This document shows positions 235 to 33,198 of a DNA stretch of 64,000 nucleotides, piece after piece. The position numbers and the translations under genes were made by a program. The notes beneath the pieces were generated by a model. That model made no database searches and was not told the origin of the DNA. It saw only the letters and a program-made list of their open reading frames with translations. The stretch spans positions 1,054,001 to 1,118,000 of the forward strand of contig JAHBTD010000001.1 in assembly GCA_019638775.1 (NCBI GenBank), read 5' to 3'. The stretch comes from Fimbriimonadaceae bacterium. Its GTDB lineage: Bacteria; Armatimonadota; Fimbriimonadia; Fimbriimonadales; Fimbriimonadaceae. Every line of letters starts with the position of its first letter. Positions within the stretch are counted from its first letter, which is position 1.

Positions 235-1986
235 ATGAAAAAAGGCATTTATTGGATCGGTGGAGTTGCAGCCCTGGGTTTCCTGGGCTGGTTTTTCTTA
301 TTAAGGGGCGGCTCCGGCAACGACGAAATCGAATATCGATACGAGAAGGTTCAGCGAACCGAGCTTGTCCGTTCAATTAGCTCGACCGGGCAGCTCGTTG
401 CTCTCACGACGGTCGACGTCAAATCCAAAGCCGGCGGCACGATTGTACGGCTTGCCGTTGATGAAGGCTCGAAGGTGAAGATGGGGGATCTCATCGCCGA
501 GATCGACCCGCGCGACACCAAAGCCACCTACGATCAAGCCACAGCAGACGTGGAAACGGCTCAGGCACGCGCCGACCAAGCGGCTATCAGCTACGACCTT
601 CAGATTGCGAACAGCCAGACTGCCGTCAAAGATGCTGAGAACGCATTGGTTGCCGCCAAGATTCGCTACGACCGGGCCAAGCTTGAGGCAGACCGTCAAC
701 CCACGCTGACCAAAGCAAATATCACTTCTGCGCAAGCTGCTTTCGATTCAGCCAAGTCGGATTACGACAAGTACATCAACATCACAGCCCCCCAAGTCCG
801 ACGAGACGTGCGGGGAACTCATGATCGAGCGAAGGCCGACTTGGCTGCAGCAACTGCCGACCTCGAACGACAGAAGGAACTTTATAGCTTGGGCTATGTG
901 GCAAAGGCCGTCGTAGAGCGCTCGCAGTCCACGTATGAAGGGGCAAAATCTACCTTCAGCGTCGCCGAACAGAGGCTTCTTACTCTCGACAAAGAGATCG
1001 AAGCTGAAACTACCCGGCTCAAGTTGGCGAGGGATCGCGCTGGAGCCTCGCTTGATGAGGCAAAGGCGAACGGAAGCCAAACCGCAATCGCCTTAAAAAG
1101 CCTACAAGATGCCCAAACAGCAGTCAGAACGGCTGAAATTAATATTCAGAAGGCCAAGGACGCGCTCGCAAACAATAAACTCCGTGCGAGCGAACTCAGC
1201 GCTGCCAAAGCTGGCACTGTTCGAAGCCGAGTTCAACTGGAGAACACCAAAGTCCAGCTCGACAGTACAACGGTCTTGGCGCCTCGCGATGGCGTTGTCA
1301 CGCTCAAGTACTTGGAAGAGGGGACGATCATCCCTCCGGGCACCAGCACGTTCGCCCAGGGCACGAGCATCGTGCAGATCAGCGACGTAACTCGGCTCTT
1401 TGTCGAGTGCGCTGTTGATGAAGCTGACATCTCCGCCGTAAAGGTCGGGCAGCGCGTACGCATCCTCACGGAAGCTTTCCCGGGTGTCGCGCTTGACGGT
1501 GAAGTCGTCCGCGTGAACCCTGCGGCATTGACCGCTCAGAACATCACCGCCATCAAGGTCCGCGTTGAGATCAAGCCCGGCTACAAGATTGAGATCATGC
1601 CTGGCATGAACGCGACCTGCGAATTCATCACGCTCAGCAAGCCGGACATTTTGAGAATCCCTGGACAGGCGCTTATCCGTGAAGACGGAAAGACTTTTGT
1701 GCGCGTCAAGGGCACAGACCCGCTCAAGCCGGAAAGACGGGAAGTCAAGGTTGGGGATACCGGCAACGACGGTGTAGAGATTCTTGAAGGCCTGAAAGAG
1801 GGTGAAGAGGTCGTTGTCGCTGAGATCAACCTGCGAGAGCTGCGTGAGATTCAGGAACGCATGGTCGAGGCCCAGCAGGGCGGAGGCTTGGCCGGTGGAG
1901 GCAGTAGGCCCGGAGGCAATCGAACACGCACCAGCGCGGCAACCGCCGGAGGCACGGGCGGCAGTGGAGGCGGAGGAAACCGATGA
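235..1986 (+). CDS. MacA/HlyD-type periplasmic adaptor of a tripartite efflux system
   Basis: A 583-residue membrane fusion protein. An N-terminal anchor (about residues 5-24, hydrophobic after KKG) is followed by a biotinyl-lipoyl half-motif. A very long Ala/Lys/Glu-rich coiled-coil hairpin covers about residues 90-340. The second lipoyl half (TTVLAPRDGVVTLKYLEEG) and beta-barrel domains follow. The last 35 residues are Gly/Arg/Thr-rich and probably disordered. The hairpin is longer than in E. coli MacA (371 residues in total), which accounts for most of the extra length. The start ATG lies three bases after the TolC-like stop, and the stop overlaps the permease start by ATGA, so translation is coupled. 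The exported substrate is unknown. Confidence 0.9.
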   Translation: MKKGIYWIGGVAALGFLGWFFLLRGGSGNDEIEYRYEKVQRTELVRSISSTGQLVALTTVDVKSKAGGTIVRLAVDEGSKVKMGDLIAEIDPRDTKATYDQATADVETAQARADQAAISYDLQIANSQTAVKDAENALVAAKIRYDRAKLEADRQPTLTKANITSAQAAFDSAKSDYDKYINITAPQVRRDVRGTHDRAKADLAAATADLERQKELYSLGYVAKAVVERSQSTYEGAKSTFSVAEQRLLTLDKEIEAETTRLKLARDRAGASLDEAKANGSQTAIALKSLQDAQTAVRTAEINIQKAKDALANNKLRASELSAAKAGTVRSRVQLENTKVQLDSTTVLAPRDGVVTLKYLEEGTIIPPGTSTFAQGTSIVQISDVTRLFVECAVDEADISAVKVGQRVRILTEAFPGVALDGEVVRVNPAALTAQNITAIKVRVEIKPGYKIEIMPGMNATCEFITLSKPDILRIPGQALIREDGKTFVRVKGTDPLKPERREVKVGDTGNDGVEILEGLKEGEEVVVAEINLRELREIQERMVEAQQGGGLAGGGSRPGGNRTRTSAATAGGTGGSGGGGNR

Positions 1987-3194: not shown

Positions 3195-3197
3195 AAG

Positions 3198-3240
3198 GTC
3201 GTGAGTCGTGAATTGTGAGTCGTGAGTCGTAAATTGCGAG
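3198..3240 (+). repeat. degenerate 7-bp tandem array, upstream arm
   Basis: Six consecutive heptamers begin 3 bases after the permease stop: GTCGTGA, GTCGTGA, ATTGTGA, GTCGTGA, GTCGTAA, ATTGCGA. Bases 3208-3228 pair with 3738-3758 at 19 of 21 positions, so this array and the one beyond the four-helix-bundle gene form an inverted repeat around that gene. No spacer-like unique sequence is present. Confidence 0.85.
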
Positions 3241-3261
3241 CAGAACCGAGGGACGTGTTTG

Positions 3262-3720
3262 ATGGCAAAGGAGCGGATTGAGTCCTACCAACAACTTAGA
3301 GTCTGGCAATTAGCTGTCGATCTATCCGTAGAACTCTACGACCTGACCTCAAGCTTTCCGCGTATCGAACAGTACGGCCTGACATCTCAAATACGCCGGT
3401 CTGCCGTGTCGGTGCCTGCAAATATAGCGGAAGGTTGGGGAAGAGGCCGCGACTCTGAATTTGCCCACTTTCTGCGTATCGCAAGAGGTTCCTTGAAAGA
3501 GCTTGAGACTTTGATCCTTATCGCCGAACGGGCTGAGATGCTCCTACAAGAACGAAAAGAGCCGTTGTTAGAGCAAACCGATCACATCGGTCGAATGCTC
3601 ACGAAGCTGATCGCTAGTCTCGATGGTCCTATTGGTCAAGTTCGGGAAAGAGTGGCCCCTTACGCCGCGGACACTGTGGGACTTTCGAGGGAGTTGGTCT
3701 TAGACTCTGATGAATACTAA
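3262..3720 (+). CDS. four-helix-bundle protein (23S rRNA intervening-sequence / Avd-like family)
   Basis: A 152-residue protein with the family hallmarks: LRVWQLAVDLSVELYDL in helix 1, then SQIRRSAVSVPANIAEGWGR and FLRIARGSLKELETLI in the middle helices. Homologs occur inside the intervening sequences of some 23S rRNA genes and as stand-alone genes; Avd of diversity-generating retroelements has the same fold. The cellular role of stand-alone members is not established. ATG at 3262 is preferred over the TTG at 3259. It splits an otherwise contiguous macAB-like operon and is bracketed by inverted heptamer arrays, which suggests an inserted unit. No reverse transcriptase or template repeat is nearby. 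Confidence 0.88.
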   Translation: MAKERIESYQQLRVWQLAVDLSVELYDLTSSFPRIEQYGLTSQIRRSAVSVPANIAEGWGRGRDSEFAHFLRIARGSLKELETLILIAERAEMLLQERKEPLLEQTDHIGRMLTKLIASLDGPIGQVRERVAPYAADTVGLSRELVLDSDEY

Positions 3721-3740
3721 CTGTCAGTCCCATTCAGGAG

Positions 3741-3780
3741 TCACGACTCACAAATCACGAGTCACTACCCACGATTCACC
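3741..3780 (-). repeat. degenerate 7-bp tandem array, downstream inverted arm
   Basis: The heptamers here are in the opposite orientation to the upstream array: TCACGAC, TCACAAA, TCACGAG, TCACTAC, CCACGAT, TCACC. They end directly against the ATG of the ABC ATPase gene and leave it no recognisable ribosome-binding site. The array therefore forms the whole leader of that gene if it is read on its own transcript. Confidence 0.85.
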
Positions 3781-4587
3781 ATGAAACCGATCATTGAAGC
3801 TCACAATCTCACCAAGGACTATGTGATGGGCGACGTTGTCGTCCACGCACTGAAAGGCGCCTCACTGACCATCAATGAAGGCGACATGGTCGCGATCATG
3901 GGGCCGTCAGGAAGCGGCAAATCCACGTTTATGAACGTGGCTGGTTGCCTCGACCGCCCAACGGCTGGACAGTACCTTCTTAACAACACGCCAGTAGCCC
4001 AACTCACCGACAACGAGCTTGCCGAAATCAGGAACCGTTACATTGGCTTCGTCTTCCAGACCTTTAACCTCCTCCCGCGTACGTCGGCTCTCAAGAACGT
4101 TGAGCTACCGTTGATGTATGCCGGAGTCAAGAACAGAAGCGACAACGCCAAGACGGCTCTCGAGACGGTTGGCTTGGGCGACCGAATGCACCACAAACCG
4201 AACGAGCTCTCGGGTGGACAGCAGCAGCGCGTCGCGATTGCCCGCGCCATCGTGAACGACCCGGTTTTGATCCTTGGCGACGAGCCAACCGGAAACCTCG
4301 ACTCGCGCACGTCTGAAGAGATCATGGCGCTCTTTCAGGACCTCAACCGCAATGGAAAAACCGTCGTGATCGTTACACACGAGCCGGATATCGCCCTCCA
4401 CTGCAAGCGGATCATTCGCTTTAAGGATGGAAGAATCGTTGCCGATGAGGTCGTTGAGAAGCAGATTGACGCCCGTGAAGTGCTCAAGACCCTTCCCACT
4501 GCCGAGGAAGAAGAAGCCGAACTGATCGCAATGGCTCGAGGCGTGAACGGTAACGGGAATAAACCCGCATTTGAAATCGGATCCTAG
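3781..4587 (+). CDS. MacB/LolD-type ABC transporter ATP-binding protein
   Basis: A 268-residue ATPase of the LolD/MacB/FtsE group. Walker A is GPSGSGKST (about residues 41-49), the signature is LSGGQQQR and Walker B is [14 protein letters not shown], with a switch histidine in VTHEPD. The N-terminus [27 protein letters not shown] is typical of the group. A 40-residue Glu-rich C-terminal extension goes beyond the usual ~230 residues. It presumably energises the permease at 1983-3194. It is separated from that gene by the four-helix-bundle unit, so co-transcription may have been altered by the insertion. Confidence 0.93.
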
Positions 4588-14634: not shown

Positions 14635-14647
14635 GCAACTGTTTGAA

Positions 14648-14690
14648 ATCAGAAATCGGATATCTGATATCCGATTTCTGATTTCTGATC
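14648..14690. terminator. palindromic heptamer array, probable bidirectional terminator
   Basis: The 17-base arms at 14648-14664 and 14666-14682 are perfectly complementary around a single-base centre. The sequence is also six consecutive heptamers (ATCAGAA, ATCGGAT, ATCTGAT, ATCCGAT, TTCTGAT, TTCTGAT). It lies between two convergent genes. It lacks a proper U-run, so its effect on transcription is an inference. Confidence 0.7.
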
Positions 14691-14702
14691 TGTGACTTCT
14701 GC

Positions 14703-28516: not shown

Positions 28517-28551
28517 TTGCGATTATCCAGAGTCCAATCGTGAATCAAAGG

Positions 28552-28628
28552 GCTATCAGCTATCAGCTATCAGCTATCAGCTATCGGCGATCAGCAATCT
28601 CCTCATTCGATAGCTGATCGCCGATAGC
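28552..28628. repeat. GCTATCA heptamer array with 20-bp hairpin
   Basis: Four exact GCTATCA units from 28552 are followed by GCTATCG, GCGATCA and GCAATCT. Bases 28580-28599 pair with 28609-28628 at 19 of 20 positions around a 9-base loop. The array lies directly after the stop of the sugar-binding protein gene and may terminate its transcript. Confidence 0.85.
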
Positions 28629-28638
28629 CGAGAGCTTC

Positions 28639-32756: not shown

Positions 32757-33198
32757 GCGATCAGCAATCAGTGATCGGCTATCTGGTCTAGTGAGCTTAT
32801 GGGGCTGATATTCTCATTTCATTCCTCAATCCTTCTTTGCTCGACATTCGTGTAGCCTCCTCTCTTGGGAGGGCGGAAGCATGGTATTCCTCCTTTAGCG
32901 ACTTCGTGGTTCCTGGCTTCCTTGTGAGAAATAGCCTCTCTCACGCAAAGCTCGCAACAATCGCCGAGGTAGGGTTGAGGTCTCTGCGAACTCTGCGCCT
33001 CTGCGTGAGCTTCCGTTTTGTTTCTCGCAAAGACGCAAAGCCCAATCAAACAGTTGCGGTGCAGGCATCCTTGCCTGCCTATTGTGGTGTTGCACGGCAT
33101 CAACAGAGCGATGCCCTCCCGGGTGTTGTGCACGGCAACGACAGAGCCGTTGCAGTCCCAGACCTCCCTATTCATCACTCCTCGTTCATCATTCATCG
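32757..33198. repeat. non-coding repeat mosaic
   Basis: The 610-base gap between genes holds no convincing CDS but several repeat types in a row. They are: heptamers GCGATCA, GCAATCA, GTGATCG, GCTATCT (32757-32784); a GACTTCGTGGTTCCTGGCTT stretch; CTCTGCGCCTCTGCGTGAG followed by CTCGCAAAGACGCAAAG in about 32985-33040; GTGCAGGCATCCTTGCCTGC near 33060; and heptamers TTCATCA, CTCCTCG, TTCATCA, TTCATCG (33171-33198). Sequences of the third and fourth kinds are, to my knowledge, scattered through genomes of many environmental bacteria. Confidence 0.7.

What the first reader, a model, noticed from the sequence alone, without database searches (positions are those of the whole stretch)
3198..3780. 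Four-helix-bundle gene bracketed by inverted heptamer arrays, inserted in a macAB operon
Arms 3208-3228 and 3738-3758 pair at 19 of 21 positions and belong to matched 7-bp arrays, GTCGTGA on one side and TCACGAC on the other. The unit of about 580 bases separates the permease from its ATPase, genes that are normally adjacent or fused. This looks like an inserted cassette: repeat, gene, inverted repeat. The function of stand-alone four-helix-bundle proteins is open; a role in spreading, protecting or processing such repeats would be new.
Basis: partly seen in the sequence, partly recalled or inferred. Interest (0 to 1): 0.7.

Follow-up and report, generated by a model that had tools for sequence, protein, structure and literature searches.

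The report
Mobile gene with matching heptamer ends
A small bacterial gene of unknown function sits between two genes of a transporter operon, bracketed by inverted runs of a 7-letter DNA word, and the same gene family carries its own private, matching word at its ends across bacteria and archaea, which may explain where many unexplained 7-letter repeats in bacterial genomes come from.

Summary
Confirmed, and general. The gene (3262-3720) is PF05635, the protein of 23S rRNA intervening sequences (S23p). Its arms score 46 in inverted alignment; the best of 5000 shuffles scores 30. Relatives mostly have permease and ATPase adjacent, so this is an insertion. Elsewhere 85 of 108 S23p loci from many phyla, and 29 of 33 from a later set, have inverted arms; a control gene gives 0 of 25. 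Period 7 stands out. Each locus has its own unit, shared by both arms, with fixed polarity, and closer proteins carry closer arms even in unrelated hosts. Free-standing arrays match the resident gene: GGGAATC-armed genomes hold GGGAATC arrays and almost no GGGACTC ones; GGGACTC-armed genomes the reverse, one mixed. In 37 of 38 loci that split a methyltransferase gene, the host frame stays open through the cassette. Arm mismatches give no sign of selection for RNA pairing. Best reading: a mobile gene-repeat unit, kin to rRNA intervening sequences, organised like RAYT/REP, in which S23p acts on its own repeat as DNA. Binding and movement are inferred, not shown. No free arrays of the window's own unit were found in 464 kb.

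The parts
3198..3240 (+). upstream arm: tandem heptamer array, unit GTCGTGA (register NTRGNGA read towards the gene)
3262..3720 (+). S23p gene (PF05635, 23S_rRNA_IVP; TIGR02436 four helix bundle protein), 152 codons from the ATG
   Evidence: 2gsc E 2.1e-21
3734..3779 (-). downstream arm: inverted heptamer array (TCACGAC), ending one base before the ATPase start codon
1983..3194 (+). host gene: MacB/FtsX-type permease
3781..4587 (+). host gene: ABC ATPase cut off from the permease by the cassette
235..1986 (+). host gene: HlyD-type membrane fusion protein
14645..14691 (.). free-standing palindromic heptamer array (TGATATC/GATTTCT type), no gene
28546..28630 (.). free-standing heptamer hairpin (GCTATCA), matches the arms of another S23p cassette of this genome (L002)

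Best explanation
The unit at 3195-3780 is an inserted gene-repeat cassette of the S23p (23S rRNA intervening sequence protein) family. Its ends are two inverted arrays of about four to six copies of a heptamer private to the cassette; its only gene encodes a small four-helix bundle, known in one relative to form a pentameric ring. The protein recognises its own heptamer, most likely as DNA, and with host enzymes lets the cassette and free-standing arrays of the same heptamer spread and stay alike. Insertions survive where they do little harm: codirectional junctions inside operons, or inside coding sequences in the one frame that stays open. SHOWN: insertion, matched private arms, fixed polarity, protein-arm covariation, type-matched free arrays, open host frame. 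INFERRED: that the protein binds the heptamer, that it acts in trans, that host replication or repair does the cutting and copying.
For: Operon uninterrupted in relatives, and cassettes with different arms at two junctions of the same operon (G000 and G018 behind the permease; G001 and G063 before it). Inverted arms at 85 of 108 S23p loci against 10-13% for swapped flanks, 29 of 33 in a later set, 0 of 25 for a control gene. Of 109 loci, 46 have both arms period-7, and in 35 of these 46 the two consensus units differ by at most one letter; between loci 10% do. Protein identity and arm similarity correlate for pairs without homologous flanks (r 0.34, 0 of 2000 permutations). 25 free arrays of this genome match its own 6 cassettes better than any of 2000 random sets of 6. 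GCTATCA x2 occurs in 1 of 85 family genomes, this one, 40 times. Type match in ten genomes of another family. Clean insertion against empty host proteins. Host frame open in 37 of 38 split hosts.
Against: No free array of the window's own unit GTCGTGA was found in 464 kb of this genome, so the trans step is not seen for this cassette. Four S23p-positive relatives had 1 free array in 400 kb: the gene does not always come with free arrays. Some genomes break the type match (G367: GGGACCG arms but 388 GGGACTC hits; G143: 152), and 15 of 232 S23p-negative genomes have ten or more GGGAATC hits. 23 of 30 free arrays have no inverted partner within 700 nt. 34 of 109 loci have no period-7 arm by my criterion. 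No target duplication was found and no catalytic motif is known. PMC4692102 (passages) reports that most Xanthomonas arrays lie between the same genes in two species, so they are not fast movers.
Confidence: 0.55

Rival explanations
1. RNA intervening sequence: the arms matter as an RNA stem. The transcript folds, RNase III cuts the stem, the S23p message is released and the operon mRNA is split, as in 23S rRNA.
For: Coxiella's IVS has a 28-bp terminal stem, RNase III excision and tandem heptamers before the S23p ORF (passages of PMC4990558). The window transcript folds with the arms paired, z -2.9. Among intergenic loci whose two neighbours within 500 nt share a strand, 37 are sense and 4 antisense.
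Against: Mismatches between arms are not biased to G-U: 74 compatible against 100 incompatible transitions (75 loci) and 8 against 16 in a second set (26 loci). Most free arrays have no partner. In 37 methyltransferase genes the frame is kept open through the cassette, which matters only if the mRNA stays whole.
Confidence: 0.2
2. Passive association: heptamer arrays arise by polymerase slippage, and the S23p gene lands in or beside arrays that were there before.
For: Heptamer excess has been attributed to slippage (cited in PMC4692102 and PMC4679880, passages). Array lengths vary greatly; L240 has about 20 copies on one side and 3 on the other.
Against: Slippage does not make two inverted arms with the same unit on either side of a gene, nor fixed polarity (G-rich strand up in 26 of 26), nor covariation of arms with the protein across unrelated hosts. 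Four S23p-negative relatives had 0 arrays in 400 kb.
Confidence: 0.13
3. S23p is a working partner of the operons it sits in (transport, GroESL, methyltransferases, cas genes), and the arms regulate that gene.
For: Recurrent hosts: groES-groEL (17 family loci by DNA similarity), sdhA-sdhB, thiolase-OB protein, secD-secF, methyltransferases of antiphage systems, cas loci (PMC3936711 passage).
Against: Hosts share no pathway; most relatives lack the gene at the site; empty hosts exist; S23p distance and host distance are not significantly correlated in 23 nested loci (r 0.14, 152 of 2000).
Confidence: 0.07

Closest known systems
23S rRNA intervening sequences with S23p (Coxiella, Leptospira; passages of PMC4990558)
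   Same: same protein family; inverted terminal repeats; tandem heptamers next to the ORF in Coxiella; insertion into a transcribed region
   Different: here outside rRNA, between or inside protein genes; ends are inverted heptamer arrays private to each cassette; cognate free arrays in the genome; no sign of RNA pair selection
RAYT/REP and REPIN (listing only, PMC3116915; details recalled)
   Same: one gene flanked by inverted copies of a repeat that is also dispersed in the genome, with gene and repeat type matching
   Different: RAYT is a Y1 HUH transposase; S23p is a four-helix bundle with no known catalytic motif; the repeat is a tandem heptamer, not a single palindrome
Heptameric SSRs GGGAATC (Xanthomonas) and GGGGATT (Nostoc) (passages of PMC4692102)
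   Same: same kind of arrays, many as inverted pairs (70 in one strain); XCC0516, the solved S23p (2gsc), comes from that Xanthomonas species
   Different: the passages I read do not link the arrays to any gene; the link is what is proposed here
Rickettsia palindromic elements (recalled; listings only)
   Same: short inverted elements inserted in frame inside protein genes
   Different: RPEs carry no overlapping gene (recalled); here a whole S23p gene lies in another frame of the host gene
DGR accessory protein Avd / bAvd fold
   Same: distant sequence kin: PF22296 E 1.6e-4, DivGenRetAVD 25.2 bits
   Different: below both curated cut-offs (40 and 80 bits); no DGR part among the four Pfam-scanned operon proteins

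Membership tests
PF05635 / TIGR02436 (S23p, four helix bundle) | score above the curated cut-off over the full domain | tested here: met
   127.7 bits vs 33.8, positions 2-105 of 106; 127 vs 24 bits; 2gsc E 2.1e-21
23S rRNA IVS | lies inside a 23S or 16S rRNA gene | tested here: not met
   window has only two tRNA matches in Rfam; L089, L097, L081, L051 none
23S rRNA IVS | inverted terminal repeats around an S23p ORF | tested here: met
23S rRNA IVS | cut out of the transcript by RNase III | not testable with these tools
   arms can pair in the predicted fold, but the mismatch pattern gives no sign of RNA selection
RAYT/REP gene-repeat system | gene flanked by inverted cognate repeats | tested here: met
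RAYT/REP gene-repeat system | same repeat dispersed through the host genome | tested here: inconclusive
   met for other cassettes of this genome and of other genomes; not found for the window's own unit in 464 kb
RAYT/REP gene-repeat system | Y1 HUH transposase | tested here: not met
   only PF05635 and bAvd match
Insertion sequence / conventional transposon | encodes a transposase or integrase | tested here: not met
   the cassette's gene is PF05635
Diversity-generating retroelement | Avd above cut-off | tested here: not met
   25.2 bits vs cut-off 80
Diversity-generating retroelement | reverse transcriptase and template/variable repeats nearby | not tested
   only four operon proteins were scanned with Pfam

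The most novel reading that the evidence does not exclude
S23p and its heptamers are a new class of self-spreading gene-repeat system, found in bacteria and archaea, whose one protein is a non-enzymatic four-helix-bundle ring that reads a private tandem heptamer. It is the source of the unexplained heptameric repeats of Xanthomonas, cyanobacteria and others. One branch has become a dual-coding parasite of antiphage methyltransferase genes: the S23p gene is nested inside the host gene and keeps the host frame open through its whole length.
Probability: 0.45. Interest if true: 0.92.

Novelty: new variant of a known kind. Interest (0 to 1): 0.82.

Why it matters
PF05635 proteins are widespread, solved in structure and of unknown function. 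Heptameric tandem repeats have been known to be over-represented in bacterial genomes without an accepted cause. Linking the two, with a sequence-specific pairing between gene and repeat, turns both into one testable question: does S23p bind its own heptamer? It also shows a gene nested inside antiphage methyltransferase genes with both frames kept open, a natural case of dual coding that crosses phyla.

Tried and rejected
RNA stem as the selected feature: tested by wobble asymmetry, no support in two sets.

Arrays as a general feature of the taxon: rejected; 0 arrays in 400 kb of four S23p-negative relatives and 1 in 400 kb of four positive ones.

Nested loci as rRNA IVSs: DNA conservation across phyla first made me think of 23S rRNA; typed rRNA motifs gave 0 hits and Rfam gave none in four loci. 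They are methyltransferase genes.

Concerted change of arms at one conserved site: S23p sits between groES and groEL in 17 family loci with different arms, but S23p distance follows GroEL distance only weakly (r 0.25, 19 of 2000), so replacement by new cassettes cannot be told from co-evolution of arms. Left open.

Other gene families: PF13366 and DUF559 genes also have repeats at their ends but not period-7; noted, not pursued.

No structure prediction was run. No test of target duplication on closely related empty alleles was possible. Paper searches listed no paper that I recognised as linking PF05635 genes to genome-wide heptamer arrays or to nesting in methyltransferases; this is a statement about the listings of these ten searches of an open-licence library, not about all print.

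Full report
WHAT IS THERE. The cassette lies at 3195-3780, between the stop codon of a MacB/FtsX permease and the start codon of its ATPase. It holds an upstream heptamer array (3198-3240, unit GTCGTGA), one gene (ATG 3262, stop 3720), and a downstream inverted array (3734-3779) that ends one base before the ATPase ATG. The inverted score of 46 compares with a maximum of 30 in 5000 dinucleotide shuffles. The gene is PF05635, the S23p of rRNA intervening sequences, and its nearest solved relative is XCC0516 of Xanthomonas campestris, 2gsc; a paper I read in passages calls the X. campestris S23p a homopentamer of four-helix bundles (PMC4990558).

IT IS AN INSERTION. The permease is found in 58 of 85 genomes of the same taxonomic family. 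Thirty loci were fetched, the window's own included. Among the 29 others, 18 have the ATPase directly behind the permease (gap -5 to 200 nt), two have larger gaps (616 and 1102 nt, other inserts), and nine show no ATPase within the stretch. G018 also has an S23p gene directly behind the permease, with DNA similar to the window's ATPase downstream; G001 and G063 have one before the permease, with other heptamers, CACCTAA and AAGGGAC type. So the same operon has been hit several times, at two junctions.

THE ARMS ARE GENERAL AND PRIVATE. This genome has 7 PF05635 matches. By eye 6 of 7 have inverted arms, each with its own unit: GTAAGGA between groES and groEL (L001), GCGATCA (L002, weak), GTCGTGA (the window), AACGATG (L004), GATTGTA (L005), TTGGGCG (L006). 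L007, a weak match below the cut-off, has none. A survey used 36 loci from this family and 80 named loci from bacteria and archaea. With 300-nt flanks, 28 of 36 and 57 of 72 (8 dropped for short flanks) score 30 or more in inverted alignment; swapped flanks do so in 13% and 10%; direct orientation gives 0 of 36 and 12 of 72. The control permease loci give 0 of 25 (4 of 29 dropped for length). With 200-nt flanks bounded by the ORF, a lag of 7 stands out: 42 (upstream) and 49 (downstream) of 109 loci reach 17 of 21 matches, against 0-6 for other lags between 3 and 15 except 14. Of 109 loci, 46 have both arms periodic, 29 one and 34 none; the median arm is 4.6 units; the common register is N-T-R-G-N-G-A read towards the gene. 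In 20 of the 46 the two arms have the same consensus unit and in 35 they differ by at most one letter; between loci this is 1.6% and 10%. Polarity is fixed: by reading the list, 44 of 46; in a second set 26 of 26. A few loci are near copies (L108/L110, L032/L034; L263 and L265 repeat L073 and L112), so counts are slightly inflated. Some groES-groEL loci use longer units than 7, by eye.

PROTEIN AND ARMS TRAVEL TOGETHER. Over 75 loci with clear arms, arm similarity rises with protein identity (r 0.48). Leaving out pairs with similar host DNA, r is 0.34 and none of 2000 permutations reaches it. Thus cassettes appear to move between unrelated hosts as gene plus matching ends.

FREE ARRAYS MATCH RESIDENT GENES. 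In twenty 20-kb stretches of this genome I counted 23 period-7 arrays (plus one run of N) against 1-6 for other periods from 4 to 12; four S23p-negative relatives gave 0 in 400 kb, four positive ones 1 in 400 kb. The 23 arrays and two in the window match this genome's own six cassettes better than any of 2000 random sets of six other cassettes; one family among them (CCAAAAT) has no good match in this genome. GCTATCA x2 occurs in 1 of 85 genomes, this one, 40 times; TTAGGTG x2 in 3 of 85, mainly G001, which has a TTAGGTG-armed cassette (30 hits, 16 of them in the cassette's own arm). For the window's own unit, no free array was found in 464 kb.

AN INDEPENDENT TEST. PMC4692102 (passages) describes unexplained GGGAATC arrays in Xanthomonas, 70 of them inverted pairs in one strain. 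I predicted that S23p genes in that family would carry such arms. In the family of Silanimonas (locus L112, genome G085), 163 of 395 genomes have PF05635. Of 36 loci fetched from that family and two cyanobacterial genomes, 33 were testable (3 dropped for odd length) and 29 have inverted arms, in the family mostly of CGGGACT, GGGACCG and GGGAATC type. GGGAATC x2 occurs ten or more times in 83 of 163 S23p-positive genomes and 15 of 232 negative ones (odds ratio 15; kinship not controlled). The four genomes with GGGAATC arms have 244, 188, 208 and 82 GGGAATC hits and 0, 1, 0, 0 GGGACTC hits. The six with GGGACTC arms have 236, 96, 531, 243, 107 and 43 GGGACTC hits and 5, 18, 6, 0, 0 and 226 GGGAATC hits; the last has three S23p genes. 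The other 19 genomes of that call have other arms; most have few GGGACTC hits, but G367 (GGGACCG arms) has 388 and G143 152. L297 lies, by eye, between accB and accC.

NESTED GENES. In 40 of 116 loci the S23p gene lies inside a longer frame of more than 350 codons, always at offset +2. Defined by homology of the two host halves instead, 38 loci split a methyltransferase-type gene; in 37 the halves are in phase and the frame is open throughout (L054 is the exception). Because most queries came from nested loci, this sample is not fully independent. A synonymous-codon shuffle expects 4.8 of 40 S23p genes to be stop-free in that frame. The two hosts scanned match type IIG/DrmMI-like and HmaB/DUF1156 methyltransferases, and 24 and 5 of the 38 loci resemble these two. 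Three plasmid HmaB homologues without the insert show a clean insertion of about 150 residues in five nested ones. One host, L089, also carries five further in-frame heptamer hairpins without a gene (read by eye). S23p and host distances are not significantly correlated (r 0.14, 152 of 2000), which suggests repeated entry at one site.

HOW IT MOST LIKELY WORKS. Shown: insertion, matched private inverted arms, polarity, protein-arm covariation, type-matched free arrays. Inferred: the S23p ring binds its own heptamer and helps host enzymes copy or spread it. DNA rather than RNA is favoured because arm mismatches do not favour G-U pairs (74 against 100; 8 against 16), most free arrays lack a partner (23 of 30), and nested loci keep the mRNA readable. 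The sense bias (37 sense, 4 antisense among intergenic loci with codirectional neighbours) shows that reading direction matters; dependence on host transcription is enough to explain it.

AGAINST KNOWN SYSTEMS. By protein family this is S23p. It fails the rRNA-location feature of IVSs and the transposase feature of RAYT/REP, so I file it as neither, but it is organised like the second and shares protein and end structure with the first. PF05635 genes in cas loci were noted before (PMC3936711 passage), and the kinship to Avd was noted before (PMC10053308 passage).

LIMITS. Gene calls for neighbours were mechanical. Named loci were drawn by similarity to the window protein. Kinship was not modelled. 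No close empty allele was found, so borders and duplications are not resolved.

Noticed in passing
L177-L197 (PF13366 GxxExxY genes): 11 of 20 loci have inverted end repeats of an octamer-like kind (ACGCAAAG/GCGCAGAG): a second gene family with its own repeat style.
   Followed up: partly
L198-L227 (DUF559 genes): 20 of 27 loci have inverted and 18 of 27 direct end repeats, palindromic CCCTCCCC..GGGGAGGG hairpins: a third gene family with its own repeat style.
   Followed up: partly
window 32990-33050: CTCTGCG..CTCTGCG..CGCAAAGACGCAAAG inverted octamers of the kind that flank GxxExxY genes, here without a gene (by eye).
   Followed up: no
L163:426-1157: A 186-codon ORF that is not S23p lies between inverted heptamer arrays in this genome: other cargo or chance pairing.
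   Followed up: partly
L163:18401-18754: Octamer repeats of the GxxExxY kind lie inside a heptamer hairpin: one repeat family nested in another (by eye).
   Followed up: no
L089:1275-6332: Five in-frame heptamer hairpins in one methyltransferase gene give peptides such as VASSEWRVASGE and PLATRHSPLAT.
   Followed up: no
L252 and L245: Relatives with other inserts of 616 and 1102 nt between permease and ATPase, neither with an S23p match.
   Followed up: no
L261: An S23p gene between cas6 and cas4 on an Anabaena plasmid, as PMC3936711 reports for other genomes.
   Followed up: no
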